Shown: in pieces, positions 4,157-60,205 of the stretch
How positions within the stretch are numbered: the first letter of the stretch is position 1
Layout of the letters: every line of letters starts with the position of its first letter
DNA from: a virus
Reading direction: 5' to 3' (one strand)
Virus record (IMG/VR): IMGVR_UViG_3300030617_000007
Span: 1 to 64,000 of that record
DNA: 64,000 nucleotides
The notes under the pieces: generated by a model
Database searches by the model: none
What the model saw: the letters and a program-made list of their open reading frames with translations, nothing else
What the model was told of the DNA's origin: nothing
Position numbers and translations under genes: made by a program

Positions 4157-4912
4157 ATGGACTATAGTGTTAGGCGCATAGACAAAAAAACTGCCAACAA
4201 GATCGTGAGTGCTAAACATTACTCACATAGGTTGGGAATTTTCTGGGAAGGCTTTGGACTATACGCGCCTAATTTAATAGGTGTAGTCTGTTATGGACAA
4301 CCTTCTGCTCCCATACAGAAGCATGCATTTAAAAATAGAGATTTTAGGTTATATGAGCTTACTAGACTTGTAGTAGATTCTGGTACAAAAAATGGTGCAA
4401 GCTACCTAATATCCCATAGTTTACAAATGCTTACACAACAGCCATCTGCTGTAATAAGTTATGCAGATTCCGCGCAAGGACATGCTGGAATTGTGTACCA
4501 AGCTACTAATTGGAAGTATACCGGGGCTGTAAAGGCTCATGACTCTTTCTATAAGGTTGGCGAGGAGGTACTCCACCCTATGACAGTTAGAGATCGCTTC
4601 GGTATAAATGATCCCTCAAGGTGGGCTAAAGAAAACGGCATTGAGGTTGTTAAACCTCAGCCAAAGCATAGATATTTTTACTTTGTTGGTAAAAAACAAG
4701 AGCAGAAAAGAATGAGATCATTACTGTCCTATCCAATCATAGATACTTATCCTAAACTGGATAAAAAGACTTACGATGATGGGTCTTCTTGTATGAGCTA
4801 TATGGAGCAATCAGATGAGCGAAGCACTGGCAGCACTGAAGTCAGCAGTGAAGACACCACAAGTCCCTTCGACGGGGAAATCGACGGGCAGTACATCGGC
4901 GACTTCAACTAA
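4157..4912 (+). CDS. Mom-like DNA modification protein (GNAT-fold)
   Basis: 251 residues. The first ~205 resemble the Mu Mom family, which converts adenine in DNA to N6-methylcarbamoyl-adenine and protects phage DNA from restriction. Visible landmarks are AKHYSHRLG near the N-terminus, LIGVVCYGQPS, YELTRLVV, ISYADSAQGHAGIVYQA and NWKYTG. The gene looks clearly AT-richer than its neighbours, suggesting recent acquisition. The last ~33 codons read through the start of recA in another frame, so the native stop may have been lost and the tail may be non-functional. Assignment rests on motif likeness only. Confidence 0.7.
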   Translation: MDYSVRRIDKKTANKIVSAKHYSHRLGIFWEGFGLYAPNLIGVVCYGQPSAPIQKHAFKNRDFRLYELTRLVVDSGTKNGASYLISHSLQMLTQQPSAVISYADSAQGHAGIVYQATNWKYTGAVKAHDSFYKVGEEVLHPMTVRDRFGINDPSRWAKENGIEVVKPQPKHRYFYFVGKKQEQKRMRSLLSYPIIDTYPKLDKKTYDDGSSCMSYMEQSDERSTGSTEVSSEDTTSPFDGEIDGQYIGDFN

Positions 4913-43808: not shown

Positions 43809-46146
43809 TTACTGCACCTCTGGAGTCGAACCTTCAATACCCAAAGGGTTGGCTTGTCCTGAGACTGCCTCACTCTGGCCGTTGTCCTTGAATGCCTCGC
43901 GCACGATGTCGCGCTTGATACGTCCTTGGGTGGCTTGATCTTCGAGTTGCTGTTTCTGTTGAAACTTCTGTGTATTGCTCTGTTGTGTAACAGCGGCTTT
44001 CGATGCATTCTGAGCGGCGGCTGACTGAGCCTGACGACGTTGCTGCATCTCTGGTGTGAGAGGCTTGATGATGTCGTTGGAGTTCTTCCACTCCGAGGCT
44101 TCGAGCCACATTTCGACAATCGGCTTGAAGTCAATGTACTCTCCGTTGATATCGGCCAGTGAAGACTGAATCTGCGGATTCTCAAGGATCTGAGTGATGA
44201 GTGTAAGCGACTGTGCCATCGTGCGCTTCGCGGCCAATGATGACCCGGCGAGGACTTCGTACGAAATACGGGCATCGTGGAACGCCTGCATGTCGACTGA
44301 AATTTCCTTACCAACCTCATCGCCGAGAATCGCCGTGATCTCAGAATCCGATAGGAAGTTGAGAATCAAGTCGTCCAAGATGTAGAGAAATGGTTTGAAG
44401 ACTTGCTCGATGAAGTTGTCAAGAGGACCATCTAAGCGTGTCGCGCTAGCACCCGCGAGGGTAGCTGCGCCGCCTGCCGTACGGCCCATTGAACTACGAG
44501 GGCCTGCGGAAGAACCTTGCACGAGTGCTTGGTCTGCGCCGGATGTGCTCTCTGTTGCCGTGTTGCTCTCCGACAATGCCGTCCAAATATCTGCGGGAAC
44601 CTTGGGGGTTTCCATCAGCTTGTAGGCTTTGTCGATATCCGTGTCGACGGTCAGGATCTTACCCAGGCCGGTGCGGATCATCTGCGTCGGCGAGTTAGTG
44701 TCGCGCTTGCGCAGGTAAATAGGATTAACGCCAAAAGACAAAATCTTGAGTATGGCGTTGATTGTTCCTTGGTCGACGCGCTGATTCTGTCCTACTAGCA
44801 AACCGAGGCCCATACCATAGAAAGCCTTTGGGCGATTCATCCAGTTTGACGATAGGAACGGAATTTTCTTGAAACGATTAGCGCCAGCAAAGATCACATG
44901 CTTACGGTCAATGACCATAATCTTTCGGCCTTTGTCCCAGTACTCCAAGACTTCCATCTTCTTGAACAACAGGTCGGGGGTTACCTCGATGTTGATCTCT
45001 TCCGAGTGGTGAACGATACCCTTCGCGTACTGCGCGGTATCACTCTCAATCGGGGCGGCTACGTTAGTGCTATAACCTTGCATCCACCAACTCTTGAGTT
45101 CTTCCTCGCTTAGAGGTAGTTCCCAACCGACGAGCTCGGGGTGGCCTTTCGGCAGCTCCGATAGAGCTTGACGGATGTTGTTGAGTGCGTAAAAGTCCAT
45201 GTAGCGAACGTCGATCACGTAGTCAGCGGTGCGGATGTCTCCGACGCTCGTCTTAGGGTCGACCAGCACCGTGTTCAGCGGACGGCTCTCGAAGAACGGT
45301 CGCGGCACAGTGCGTACTTCTTTGGTTATGACTGGTAGTGTGTCCAGAGGGATCGTGATCTTCTCTGAGGTACTTGGATCGCTTCCGCTCGTGATGGTCG
45401 CGCTCGTAGCGGTACGCTTAGAGCTGACGATCTCCTTAAAGTCGATACCCCATTTCCATATGCCGGTGCCAAGCAGGGTCATCTGCTCTAAACCCCATTT
45501 GGTCTGGGTCTTGAACCCACACTCGTCAAGCAAGTAAGAGAACAGAGCAGTCTTTGCGTCTACGGTTTCTTGCGTGGTGCCTGGGCGCGGACGGAGGAGC
45601 ATGGGCGGATCTTGGTAGAACAGACCCTTGTACAACTGAGGTACGATTGCGGAACAAACTTTAGCTACGGTGAAGCGCTGCACGTTCGGTTCTAACACAT
45701 CAATATGTTATCGGCTTGCGCCGAGATAGGGCATTTCTGCCTACCTCTGCATGTTTTTATTCCATGCAGGTCGGACTATCGCTTCACCCTAAAGGGTGTC
45801 GTCTCACTTAGTCTCTCACGCTGCTGAAGTTATCAGCTTGCGCCCTGTTAGCCATTTCAGCTTCCAAGTCAATCAGAGTCGATTCGCACTCTCGAATTTC
45901 GGCGAGGTGCCCCATGTATGTCTAGGTATTTTCGTACACACTCATCGGTCGCGGCGACTGGAACAGAAGGTCGGCATCACGCCAGAGCAAATTCCATTGC
46001 TTATCATTCACGAACTGAATAGATCTTGTTGCAGCTCCGACGACTAAGTTCAACTCCGCATTGGAGGTCTTTAGGTCCGAACCTTTACCATAATCGCTAG
46101 GGTTTAGTGTCCCTGTGACTGGCCCTTCTGATGTTATCTCACCCAC
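43809..46146 (-). CDS. portal protein, split by a group I intron
   Basis: Two exons. Exon 1 (46146 to about 45925) has a GTG start with GGAGG upstream and encodes ~74 residues ending LLFQSPRPMSVYEN. Exon 2 (about 45695 to 43809) encodes ~629 residues starting LEPNVQRFTVAKVC. Exon 2 has portal features: a helical NRPKAFYGMGLGLLVGQNQ clip-stem region, a C-terminal GGAATLAGASATRLDG loop and a Gln-rich coiled tail. Total about 702 residues, normal for podoviral portals. Without splicing, exon 1 stops at TAG (45922-45924) inside the intron. It lies directly downstream of terminase, as usual. Confidence 0.8.
45696..45927 (-). ncRNA. group I intron in the portal gene
   Basis: About 230 bases with no ORF. 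The conserved 3' core is readable on the minus strand: AGAGACTAAGTG (R element, P7 5' strand), a P8-like hairpin ACACCCTTTAGGGTG, and AAGCGATAGTCC (S element, P7 3' strand). Two related segments, GGCGCAAGCTGATAA and GGCGCAAGCCGATAA, flank this core. Ends were set by joining the exons in frame: intron starting after AAT or ACC and ending in G before TTA. The exact 5' splice site is unresolved because P1 is weak in either choice. Confidence 0.8.
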
Positions 46147-50624: not shown

Positions 50625-50701
50625 TGGTCTGGGTGGTTCGATTTGAACGAACGGCCTTCCGATTCCAGATCGGAAGCTCTACCAGACTGAGCTACACCCA
50701 T
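50625..50701 (-). tRNA. tRNA-Pro (UGG)
   Basis: Cloverleaf read on the minus strand: D-arm GCTCAGTCTGGTAGAGC, anticodon arm TCCGA-TCTGGAA-TCGGA with anticodon TGG, T-arm GTTCG-TTCAAAT-CGAAC. The acceptor has six pairs with an A1/G72 mismatch, and ACCA is encoded. It lies between virion genes, where it could supplement rare-codon supply. Confidence 0.92.
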
Positions 50702-52612: not shown

Positions 52613-52687
52613 TGGCTGGCTCGCTAGGTCTCGAACCTAGAACCGTTCGGTTAACAGCCGAATGCTCTGCCGTTGAGCTACAAGCCA
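52613..52687 (-). tRNA. tRNA-Asn (GUU)
   Basis: Minus strand: acceptor TGGCTTG / CGAGCCA, D-arm GCTCAACGGCAGAGC, anticodon arm TTCGG-CTGTTAA-CCGAA with anticodon GTT, T-arm CTAGG-TTCGAGA-CCTAG, then G and an encoded CCA. A complete, normal tRNA. Confidence 0.95.
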
Positions 52688-58564: not shown

Positions 58565-58876
58565 ATGGCATTCGAGAAAGTAGACAGGACGTTTTGGCAG
58601 GGAACACTATTCAACTACCAAGACTTAGGACCGGCAATCAAAGGCGGGAAGACCCACAAATTTAGGGTTATATCCCGCAAGCGCAGAGATGTGGGTACCC
58701 ATGTTGGTTATATTCGATGGGCCAACCCTTCAAACTGCATGTCCTTCTACCCGCTCGTGCCTATGCTTTCACCGACCGATATGGAAGAGCTAGCAGCATT
58801 CTCAAAAGAGCGTACCGATACGCATCTGGCAACCACGGACTACGGGGCGGGAAGACCGCCAGGGAGAAAGAAGTAA
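58565..58876 (+). CDS. hypothetical protein (103 aa)
   Basis: ATG at 58565 is chosen because the upstream in-frame codons lie inside the promoter. Basic, beta-rich (KTHKFRVISRKRRDVGTHVG) with a Pro/Arg/Lys tail (GRPPGRKK). No family recognised. The stop overlaps the next ATG (TAATG). Confidence 0.6.
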   Translation: MAFEKVDRTFWQGTLFNYQDLGPAIKGGKTHKFRVISRKRRDVGTHVGYIRWANPSNCMSFYPLVPMLSPTDMEELAAFSKERTDTHLATTDYGAGRPPGRKK

Positions 58877-59007
58877 TGGGAATAGGATTGATCCTGCTCT
58901 TTGGTCTTGCACTGTATTTAAAAAAGCGCAAGAAAGACCTTGACACACCAACCAGACTTGAAGTAAGGTATACAGAAGACATCTCGGACAAAACACTCGT
59001 CCGGTAA
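58876..59007 (+). CDS. tiny membrane protein (43 aa)
   Basis: Hydrophobic N-terminus (MGIGLILLFGLALYL) followed by KKRKK. The 3' part overlaps the tmRNA promoter and its stop lies at the start of the tmRNA acceptor piece. Confidence 0.45.
   Translation: MGIGLILLFGLALYLKKRKKDLDTPTRLEVRYTEDISDKTLVR
58940..58969 (+). promoter_or_regulatory. probable tmRNA promoter
   Basis: TTGACA (58940-58945), an 18-base spacer and TAAGGT (58964-58969). +1 would be near 58976, about 25 bases before the acceptor piece of the tmRNA. Confidence 0.5.
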
Positions 59008-59336
59008 CACACGTAGAAGGTTGCTTGTTATTGTCGGCGGACGCGAGGGCAGAACTCGCCACCTCCACCATAAATTGATCTTGATTCGATTATGGGGGTG
59101 ACTCAGTTTCGACGGCGGCTGATAGTGGGTACAACTTGCGTGTCGGGAATTTGTTAGCTTCGCCCGTAAAAAGAAACTCGCAAAAAGAAATGTCACGAAC
59201 AATGACGAAATGGCTTCGATCCGCAACATGGTGATGTTCCCCTCGGCTTCGGCTGGGCACGACATCGACACCAAGGTGCGAGTAGCCGATCTGGTTGCAG
59301 CCTAAGCTGCTAAGGTAGTCCCTGCCTCACAGGGAC
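59003..59336 (+). ncRNA. ssrA: circularly permuted (two-piece) tmRNA
   Basis: The acceptor piece comes first: T-arm GCGAG-GGCAGAA-CTCGC (59043-59059), acceptor strand CACCTCC (59060-59066), A and an encoded CCA (to 59070). After a 23-base spacer the coding piece starts with GGGGGTG (59094-59100), which pairs with CACCTCC, then ACTCAGTTTCGACGG. AGGTTGCTTGTTATTG (59018-59033) pairs with TGATAGTGGG and CAACTT (59120-59137), joining the pieces. CGGG...CCCGTAAAAA is a PK1-like element. The tag frame ends GTT GCA GCC TAA inside the hairpin GCAGC-CTAA-GCTGC. A final hairpin (GTCCCTG/CAGGGAC) marks the 3' side. Both outer ends are approximate. Confidence 0.85.
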
Positions 59337-59584
59337 ACACATTGAAGTCTAGACCCGCCTCCTAAAAAGAGCAATCTCCGGTGCCATCGTGCTCGGAAGT
59401 AATGGCGCACTCCATCCCTAAGCTGAGACCCAGTAAGGGCGCTGAGAAGGTGTGCGGCGGTAGTCGGGCATTTGCAGCAATGGGAACGGCTGGCCAGTTA
59501 GTTCGGGGCACCCAAGGGGCGGGTTCAGGCGGGTTTCGCCGCTCCACCAAATTGAAACAAATACGTAACAAGAATCGAGAAACT
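59337..59584 (+). other. spacer after the tmRNA, unresolved
   Basis: No clear gene. A frame continuous with the next gene is open back to an ATG at 59402 and would add a basic Gly-rich N-terminus. The DNA also ends a GC-rich stretch with GCCGCTCCACCA (59537-59548), which looks like a tRNA 3' end, but I could not fold a cloverleaf. Either reading is uncertain. Confidence 0.35.
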
Positions 59585-60205
59585 ATGACACCGAACATTC
59601 ATTTCACCAGCGACGAACATTTCGGACATCGAAACGTAATGCTCGGCTTTCTAGATCACAAGACCGGTCTACCAACCTCAAAGCCTCGTCCCTGGGGGAC
59701 TCTCGAAGAGATGACTGAGGGAATGATCGACCGGCACAATTATGTCGTCAAGTCCGGTGACCTCGTGTACCATTTGGGAGACGCTTTTTGGAGAACTTTT
59801 GGCGTCGACAATGCAATTGAAGTCATGCAACGTCTAAACGGGAACCACTACTACATCTTCGGCAACCATGAAGAGTTGTTTGAAGAGGCTGGGCGTTCGG
59901 TGACTCTCAAGCATCAGTTTGTGTGGTTGAAGGATCGTGCGAAGCTAAAGGTTCAGCTCGATCCTACGAAGTCCAAGAAGCAGATGATCGTGCTCGATCA
60001 CTTTGCCGGGCGTGTGTGGGATAAGTCTCATAGCGGATCGTGGCAGTTATATGGCCACAGTCACGGCGCTCTACCTGAGCAGGACGACCTCCTGTCGTTC
60101 GACGTAGGAGTCGATGCAAACAACTGGTATCCGGTATCCATCGAAGAGGTGGCGCAGCGGATGTCTCTCAAGGGAAAGCCGAATCGTTTCGGCCAACACG
60201 GATAA
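59585..60205 (+). CDS. metallophosphoesterase (small, calcineurin-like)
   Basis: 206 residues from the ATG at 59585: TSDEHFGH, GDLVYHLGDAFW, FGNHEELF, YGHSHG and FDVGVDANNW are the metal-binding motifs, in the order found in short phage and bacterial phosphoesterases. Substrate unknown. The weak site GAGAAACT precedes the ATG; an upstream extension to 59402 is open. Confidence 0.85.
   Translation: MTPNIHFTSDEHFGHRNVMLGFLDHKTGLPTSKPRPWGTLEEMTEGMIDRHNYVVKSGDLVYHLGDAFWRTFGVDNAIEVMQRLNGNHYYIFGNHEELFEEAGRSVTLKHQFVWLKDRAKLKVQLDPTKSKKQMIVLDHFAGRVWDKSHSGSWQLYGHSHGALPEQDDLLSFDVGVDANNWYPVSIEEVAQRMSLKGKPNRFGQHG

What the first reader, a model, noticed from the sequence alone, without database searches (positions are those of the whole stretch)
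59003..59336. Phage-encoded circularly permuted tmRNA
The acceptor end (T-arm, CACCTCC, A, CCA) lies 23 bases upstream of the coding end (GGGGGTG...TTTCGACGG). The two halves form a 7-bp acceptor stem, a perfect 5-bp T-stem, and a 16-bp inter-piece helix with a two-base bulge (many G-U pairs). Permuted tmRNA genes are known from alphaproteobacteria and a few other lineages. One carried by a lytic-looking phage implies tuned ribosome rescue or proteolysis tagging during infection.
Basis: partly seen in the sequence, partly recalled or inferred. Interest (0 to 1): 0.9.

Follow-up and report, generated by a model that had tools for sequence, protein, structure and literature searches.

The report
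Split ribosome-rescue RNA in soil phages
A phage related to phages of soil Acidobacteria carries its own two-piece copy of the RNA that frees stuck ribosomes; two-piece versions in phages are already known, but here related phages share one while their bacterial hosts use the ordinary one-piece form.

Summary
Window 59009-59305 (+) is a circularly permuted tmRNA gene: Rfam RF04321, 67.4 bits, cut-off 47. CCA ends at 59070, a 23-nt spacer follows, the coding piece starts at 59094. ARAGORN misses it. Nearest isolates are Acidobacteriota phages Tunturi_3 and Tunturi_4; both carry an unannotated permuted tmRNA. RF04321 is over cut-off in 12 of 50 portal-related records, 8 of 8 of those of 89 kb or more, and in 9 of 27 polymerase-related ones. 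Among 18 distinct genes the pieces co-vary. Hosts differ: 159 of 200 family genomes have a standard tmRNA; the 11 host-phylum loci over the permuted cut-off read as standard. Origin is open: a 3' hairpin shared with alphaproteobacterial-type genes suggests common descent, but the beta model fits most relatives best and a short tree leaves them unplaced, nearest to host genes. Many tags look long. No SmpB in 9 phage records. Phage two-piece tmRNA was already published (PMC9004378). New member of a known kind; transcription and function untested.

The parts
59009..59070 (+). acceptor piece of the permuted tmRNA: 3' strand of helix H2, GGAC (59039-59042), T-arm (59043-59059), acceptor strand CACCTCC, A73, CCA (mature 5' end not defined)
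   Evidence: RF04321 alignment; 7/7 and 5/5 pairing; H2 duplex with the coding piece
59071..59093 (+). 23-nt intervening sequence expected to be removed
   Evidence: between the encoded CCA and the 5' end of the coding piece; 11-219 nt in the 18 distinct genes
59094..59336 (+). coding piece: acceptor 5' strand GGGGGTG, TTTCGACGG, H2 5' strand, tag frame, H5-type stem, 3' hairpin (mature 3' end not defined)
   Evidence: RF04321 alignment to 59305; the rest read from sequence
59195..59305 (+). probable tag reading frame TNNDEMASIRNMVMFPSASAGHDIDTKVRVADLVAA + TAA (36 codons if ACG 59195 is the resume codon; the resume codon is a guess)
   Evidence: open frame to TAA 59303-59305
59297..59310 (+). 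H5-type stem GCAGC/GCTGC with the tag stop codon in its loop region
   Evidence: 5-bp stem around the stop
59318..59336 (+). hairpin GTCCCTG-CCTCA-CAGGGAC after the tag; near the place where 11 of 18 genes have the ACCTNGNAACAGAA-loop hairpin

Best explanation
It is a phage-encoded, circularly permuted (two-piece) tmRNA gene. Shown by sequence: acceptor piece, spacer and coding piece in that order; acceptor stem with G3-U70, T-stem, inter-piece helix, tag frame and stop; the same gene in many related phages. Inferred from established tmRNA biology: one transcript is made, host tRNA-processing enzymes remove the spacer, the two pieces stay paired, host AlaRS charges the CCA end with alanine (G3-U70), host SmpB delivers it to ribosomes stalled on broken mRNA, and the tag is translated and sends the product to proteases. 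During infection, when mRNA is being broken down, this would free ribosomes for phage translation. As no SmpB was found in the phages, the host's would be used. The split gene is not a copy of the host form, which is one-piece. Common descent with alphaproteobacterial permuted tmRNA is my preferred but contested reading of its origin.
For: RF04321 67.4 bits, E 8.1e-11; over cut-off in 9 of 27 polymerase-related records and 12 of 50 portal-related records, 8 of 8 of those of 89 kb or more. In 18 distinct genes: 3-4 pair types at acceptor positions 4-6, 2-3 at each T-stem position, G3-U70 in 18 of 18; inter-piece duplex mean -27.7 cognate against -21.3 non-cognate, 0 of 20,000 re-pairings with as good a mean. 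A tag frame in 16 of 18. RF00023 over cut-off in 0 of the 27 records. Hosts: 4 of 4 named genomes and 159 of 200 family genomes have a standard tmRNA; 11 of 11 loci over the RF04321 cut-off in host-phylum genomes read as standard genes. SmpB in 0 of 9 phage records, control found it in 10 of 14 genomes.
Against: No transcript or processed ends are known. The perfect stem pairing is partly by selection: genes were found with a model, 15 of 18 placed by a rule asking at least 6/7 and 5/5 pairs, 3 placed by eye; and foreign acceptor halves also pair 7/7 in 49 of 306 combinations. G514 encodes ACCC, not ACCA. The tag filter itself asked for small or hydrophobic ends; G543 and G524 gave no convincing frame. 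The window T-loop is GGCAGAA. 4 of 11 polymerase-related records of at least 80 kb have no match over cut-off. On origin: the window and 6 other genes lack the strict ACCTNGNAACAGAA hairpin; of 17 relatives the beta model is the best clan model in 12, RF00023 in 4, alpha in 1, and 16 of these 17 best matches lie below their own cut-off; in the core tree the phage genes lie outside the alpha/beta/marine group (support 0.27) and the nearest non-phage tip is a host tmRNA for 18 of 18. The resume codons, and so tag lengths, are guesses.
Confidence: 0.88

Rival explanations
1. It is a permuted tmRNA-like decoy: the tRNA-like domain binds host SmpB or AlaRS and blocks host trans-translation, as reported for the domain-only RNA of mycobacteriophage DS6A, and the tag is not translated.
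For: PMC11915505 (section 12 read) and PMC4131195 (passages read) report the DS6A case; the window's T-loop is unusual.
Against: DS6A keeps little more than the tRNA-like domain; here 16 of 18 genes have a tag frame to a stop with a stem of at least 4 bp around it, which a pure decoy would not need.
Confidence: 0.1
2. Same RNA, other origin: the phage genes arose by a separate permutation of an acidobacterial-type standard tmRNA, and the 3' hairpin was gained or kept independently.
For: Nearest non-phage tip is a host tmRNA for 18 of 18 (short host branches may cause this); 14 of 18 have TTCRA T-loops, as do the four named host genes (read); the alpha model is the best clan model in only 1 of 17 relatives.
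Against: The ACCTNGNAACAGAA hairpin is in 11 of 18 phage genes, 17 of 19 other IMG/VR permuted genes and 21 of 29 alphaproteobacterial-type genes, and in 0 of 24 host genes.
Confidence: 0.3
3. It is a decaying tmRNA fragment left by recombination or integration, without function.
For: tmRNA genes are common integration sites (PMC11915505); the host-family genome G224 has an extra upstream tmRNA copy.
Against: The hosts have the standard form; the gene is in 8 of 8 long portal-related records with changes on both sides of pairs.
Confidence: 0.03
4. Chance fold, or a plain tRNA misread as tmRNA.
For: Ordinary folding energy; ARAGORN calls nothing.
Against: E 8.1e-11, conservation and piece-to-piece matching.
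Confidence: 0.01

Closest known systems
Permuted tmRNA (Rfam RF04321), with alpha_tmRNA RF01849
   Same: order acceptor-spacer-coding, tRNA-like domain, inter-piece helix, tag frame, G3-U70; 3' hairpin with ACCTNGNAACAGAA loop in 11 of 18 of the phage genes
   Different: only positions 87-168 of the alpha model match the window; 16 of 17 relatives do not reach the cut-off of their best clan model; many tags look long; the host phylum uses the standard form
Two-piece tmRNA of methylophage Melnitz and marine relatives (PMC9004378, passages read)
   Same: phage-borne two-piece tmRNA unlike that of the host lineage; the paper counts 53 two-piece among 133 unique phage tmRNA structures
   Different: marine myophage with a glutamine riboswitch and an alphaproteobacterial tmRNA by its tree; here soil phages related to Acidobacteriota phages, no riboswitch match in 58850-59700, origin unresolved
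Standard tmRNA of the host family (RF00023)
   Same: same tRNA-like domain
   Different: one-piece gene with the acceptor half downstream; the ACCTNGNAACAGAA hairpin in 0 of 24
tRNA-like-domain-only RNA of mycobacteriophage DS6A
   Same: phage-borne tmRNA-derived RNA
   Different: no tag frame there; a tag frame here

Membership tests
Permuted (two-piece) tmRNA, RF04321 | covariance model score over the gathering cut-off | tested here: met
   67.4 bits against 47
Permuted (two-piece) tmRNA, RF04321 | acceptor piece upstream of the coding piece, with an intervening sequence | tested here: met
   CCA 59070, spacer 23 nt, coding piece from 59094
Permuted (two-piece) tmRNA, RF04321 | acceptor stem with G3-U70, T-arm, CCA position | tested here: met
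   window 7/7 and 5/5 with CCA; G3-U70 in 18 of 18, CCA encoded in 17 of 18
Permuted (two-piece) tmRNA, RF04321 | the two pieces can be held together by base pairing | tested here: met
   cognate duplex mean better than in any of 20,000 re-pairings; window partner ranks 1 of 18
Permuted (two-piece) tmRNA, RF04321 | tag reading frame with its stop in a stem (H5) | tested here: met
   window frame ends VADLVAA-TAA, 5-bp stem
Permuted (two-piece) tmRNA, RF04321 | two processed RNA pieces, alanine charging, SmpB binding, tagging in vivo | not testable with these tools
   needs RNA and protein from infected cells
alpha_tmRNA, RF01849 | match over cut-off across the whole model | tested here: inconclusive
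   57.9 bits (cut-off 50) but only positions 87-168 of 355
alpha_tmRNA, RF01849 | 3' hairpin with ACCTNGNAACAGAA loop (a feature I derived here, not a published definition) | tested here: not met
   absent in the window; 11 of 18 phage genes; 21 of 29 alphaproteobacterial-type genes
Standard tmRNA, RF00023 | coding 5' half upstream and acceptor half downstream in one gene, score over cut-off | tested here: not met
   no RF00023 match listed in the window at gathering cut-off; 0 of 27 related records over cut-off

The most novel reading that the evidence does not exclude
A phage lineage, rather than bacterial chromosomes, is a long-term reservoir of split tmRNA and may have carried the split form between bacterial phyla; its long, phage-specific tags would mark proteins differently from the host's short tag during infection.
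Probability: 0.15. Interest if true: 0.75.

Novelty: new member of a known kind. Interest (0 to 1): 0.45.

Why it matters
A split tmRNA is shared by many related soil phages, two cultivated ones among them, while the hosts keep the one-piece form. What a phage gains from its own ribosome-rescue RNA therefore becomes testable in existing phage-host pairs, because phage RNA and phage tag can be told apart from the host's. It also shows that deposited phage genomes hold unannotated tmRNAs: both Tunturi records do, and ARAGORN calls neither the window's nor that of Tunturi_3.

Tried and rejected
A nucleotide search of 58700-59900 in the phage collection found nothing, so proteins were used. RF04321 hits over cut-off in host-phylum genomes (3 of 200; 9 of 297; 11 distinct loci) first looked like host permuted genes; reading showed the coding half 314-322 nt upstream of the acceptor half in 11 of 11, so that idea was dropped. 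The matches below the cut-off (87 of 90 genomes, 79 of 88) were not read, except L213, L215 and L230, printed.

A tree of the tRNA-like core (89 sequences) was made to test alphaproteobacterial origin. It did not support it: the phage genes are unplaced and nearest to host genes. 3 of the 31 bacterial permuted loci (L604-L633, L345) did not parse and were left out.

The stretch 59337-59584 was examined as a possible second tRNA-like RNA. Folding is ordinary (z -0.01). A hairpin GGGGCGG...CCGCTCC-ACCA at 59516-59549 has likes near the tmRNA of G541 and after the portal gene in L273 and L290. In five genomes (one of them the window) such CCA hairpins number 1, 4, 3, 7 and 3 against shuffle means of 0.6, 0.9, 1.85, 1.25 and 0.8; only G507 (7) exceeds all its 20 shuffles, and the hits include tmRNA acceptors and other types. 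Left as unexplained.

A search with the polymerase in bacterial genomes found no relative. An RF-1 domain gene was considered as a conserved partner; 2 of 24 records have it. Mature RNA ends could not be fixed.

Full report
What is there. Window 59009-59305 on the + strand matches Rfam RF04321 (tmRNA_permuted) with 67.4 bits (cut-off 47, E 8.1e-11), and 59038-59114 matches alpha_tmRNA with 57.9 bits (cut-off 50) over positions 87-168 of 355. ARAGORN calls two tRNAs and no tmRNA in the window. Read directly, the acceptor strand CACCTCC, A and CCA end at 59070; 23 bases follow; the coding piece begins GGGGGTGACTCAGTTTCGACGG at 59094. Pairing is 7 of 7 in the acceptor stem, with G3-U70, and 5 of 5 in the T-stem. 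The tag frame runs to TAA 59303-59305 and ends DTKVRVADLVAA; the stop lies within a 5-bp stem GCAGC/GCTGC. A 7-bp hairpin closes at 59336.

What carries it. The window is part of a 65,737-base virus record with primase/helicase, UvsX-like recombinase, DNA polymerase, terminase, portal and major head genes by PHROG matches. By its portal protein one phage record matches, Tunturiibacter phage Tunturi_3 (71%); by its polymerase 176 records match, of which only Tunturi_3 (49%) and Tunturi_4 (40%) cover at least 80% of the protein. Both were isolated on Tunturiibacter, family Acidobacteriaceae, phylum Acidobacteriota. Polymerase, tmRNA and phosphoesterase lie in the same order and orientation in the window and in Tunturi_3; in Tunturi_4 the tmRNA is elsewhere, about 31 kb from the polymerase. 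No integrase was seen among 39 window ORFs scanned; not all ORFs were scanned. An 85,920-base record, G003, appears to be the same virus: its polymerase is 100% identical and the stretch 59000-59600 recurs in it unchanged.

How widely it is kept. With RF04321, 9 of 27 polymerase-related records (counting both isolates; two of the 27 came in by a DNA pattern) are over the cut-off. Of the 11 records of at least 80 kb among them, 7 have it; G011 (polymerase 37% identical), G013 (31%), G023 (24%) and G025 (22%) do not, while G012 (34%) does. With the portal protein, 201 loci encode a relative and the best 80 were kept; of the 77 in records not yet searched I searched 50: 12 over cut-off, among them 8 of 8 records of 89 kb or more. 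RF00023 was over its cut-off in 0 of the 27 records, with weaker matches in 13. The two isolate records have no annotation at these places, and the main text of the isolate paper does not contain the word tmRNA (PMC11924767; term search and passages).

Do the pieces belong together? The window and 21 matches make 22 genes. G007 was left out because its stretch printed the same as that of G005; of the remaining 21, three repeat others, leaving 18 distinct. Acceptor positions 4, 5 and 6 show 3, 4 and 4 pair types and the T-stem 2 or 3 at each position; all 216 cells pair, against a mean of 165 and a largest value of 180 in 2,000 column shuffles. This is partly by selection: the genes came from a model search, 15 of 18 were placed by a rule asking for at least 6 of 7 and 5 of 5 pairs and three by eye. 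Foreign acceptor halves also pair 7 of 7 in 49 of 306 combinations. The inter-piece helix was not selected by my rule: the cognate duplex averages -27.7 kcal/mol against -21.3 for foreign partners, and none of 20,000 random re-pairings had as good a mean; the window's own partner ranks first of 18, Tunturi_4's ninth and G523's tenth. Spacers are 11-219 nt. CCA is encoded in 17 of 18; G514 has CCC.

Tags. With a filter that itself asked for small or hydrophobic ends, a frame was accepted in 16 of 18 genes, G543 and G524 being the exceptions; some genes offered two frames. Four probably encode short tags with Ala-rich ends (G012, G016, G526, G534); in the other 12 the frame is open for 35 or more codons before the stop, which is an upper bound. 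If the codon after AATGTC is the resume codon, the window tag has 36 residues; the commonest length in the tmRNA database is 10 (PMC11915505, section 12 read). The resume codons are my guess. Window TKVRVADLVAA and Tunturi_3 RKVRVAQFATMLAA share a core.

The hosts. Four named genomes reached through a 16S probe (Edaphobacter lichenicola M8UP30, now Tunturiibacter lichenicola and so of the isolates' host genus, Granulicella mallensis X5P3, Terriglobus albidus DSM 26559, Occallatibacter savannae AB23) each have a standard tmRNA of 164.2-195.5 bits. In 200 genomes of the family of the first, 159 have one at E 1e-20 or better and 41 gave none. RF04321 was over cut-off in 3 of 200 and in 9 of 297 of the phylum, 11 distinct loci; all 11 have the coding half 314-322 nt upstream of the acceptor half, so they are standard genes. 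Weaker matches were mostly not read. The phage gene is thus not a copy of the usual host form. That the window's own phage infects Acidobacteriota is inferred from its isolate relatives.

Where it comes from. A hairpin after the tag with loop ACCTNGNAACAGAA and a stem of at least 4 bp is present in 11 of 18 phage genes, in 0 of 24 host standard tmRNAs (the 4 named and the 20 best-scoring of the family), and in 17 of 19 other distinct IMG/VR permuted tmRNAs. It is also in L345, the 254.8-bit alpha-model gene of G551, reached through a record titled Alphaproteobacteria bacterium. The background is 7 in 791,316 strand-bases of phage sequence, some of them the tmRNAs themselves. This favours common descent with alphaproteobacterial permuted tmRNA. 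Against it: the window, Tunturi_4, G008, G511, G524, G012 and G514 lack the strict motif; of 17 relatives the best clan model is beta in 12, RF00023 in 4 and alpha in 1, with 16 of these 17 matches below cut-off; the core tree leaves the phage genes outside the alpha, beta and marine set with support 0.27, and the nearest non-phage tip is a host tmRNA for 18 of 18, perhaps because host branches are short. The window's T-loop GGCAGAA resembles the alphaproteobacterial GGCAGTA, while 14 of 18 phage genes have a seven-base TTCRA loop. Cyanobacterial permuted tmRNA was not compared. I hold alphaproteobacterial descent to be more likely than not, no more.

Mechanism. Shown: gene architecture, conservation, matching of the pieces, tag frame, no SmpB match in 9 of 9 phage records. 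Inferred: spacer removal by host tRNA-processing enzymes, alanine charging through G3-U70, use of host SmpB, rescue of ribosomes on mRNA broken during infection, tagging for proteolysis. A decoy role, as reported for mycobacteriophage DS6A, is the main functional rival and is weakened by the kept tag frames.

What is known. Two-piece tmRNA in phages was described for methylophage Melnitz, with 53 two-piece of 133 unique phage tmRNA structures counted and an alphaproteobacterial affinity despite another host (PMC9004378, passages read). RF04321 was published in 2025 with 79 unique bacteriophage tmRNA sequences in its database (PMC11915505; first part of the text, passages and section 12 read). 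PMC4131195 was read in passages. Searches for permuted or two-piece tmRNA with phage and for tmRNA with Acidobacteria and phage listed 2 of 2, 10 of 11, 15 of 165 and 15 of 16 papers; no listed title or abstract start concerns tmRNA of acidobacterial phages. Only open-licence papers are held, and I did not read the rest. I file it as a new member of a known kind, with the host mismatch and the long tags as its notable features.

Noticed in passing
window 59516-59549: Hairpin GGGGCGG-16 nt-CCGCTCC followed by ACCA (G3-U70-like, CCA-ended) in the non-coding stretch after the tmRNA; 0 of 500 shuffles of 59306-59584 gave a GGG/TCC-ACCA hairpin, 13 gave any 7-bp one. Like hairpins lie upstream of the tmRNA of G541 (L332) and between the portal gene and the next start codon in L273 and L290. 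CTCCACCA occurs 10 times in the window, 2.15 expected.
   Followed up: partly
L634:2947-3294 (-) (Tunturi_4 43946-44293) and L031:14802-15140 (+) (Tunturi_3): RF-1 domain genes with GGAGGQ/GGKGGQ, ArfB-like ribosome-rescue candidates; in Tunturi_4 directly upstream of the permuted tmRNA on the same strand. 2 of 24 records searched have one.
   Followed up: partly
L031:10712-11466: 755-base stretch without annotated gene in Tunturi_3 between a lipoprotein gene and the phosphoesterase, with GGGGCCGTAAGG twice; no Rfam match up to E 1. Possibly a large structured RNA.
   Followed up: no
L031:9785-9859: Tunturi_3 tRNA that ARAGORN reports with a four-base anticodon (gaaa), downstream of the tmRNA.
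   Followed up: no
L210 (G224, a genome of the host family): Two tmRNA coding starts 419 bases apart on one strand; the downstream one is a standard gene, the upstream copy lacks a normal acceptor end, perhaps an integration remnant.
   Followed up: partly
window 4157-4909: Mom-like DNA modification protein (phrog_1384, E 5.1e-47), suggesting modified phage DNA.
   Followed up: no
window 50625-50701 and 52613-52687 (-): tRNA-Pro(tgg) and tRNA-Asn(gtt); a tRNA-Asn(gtt) is also in Tunturi_3.
   Followed up: no
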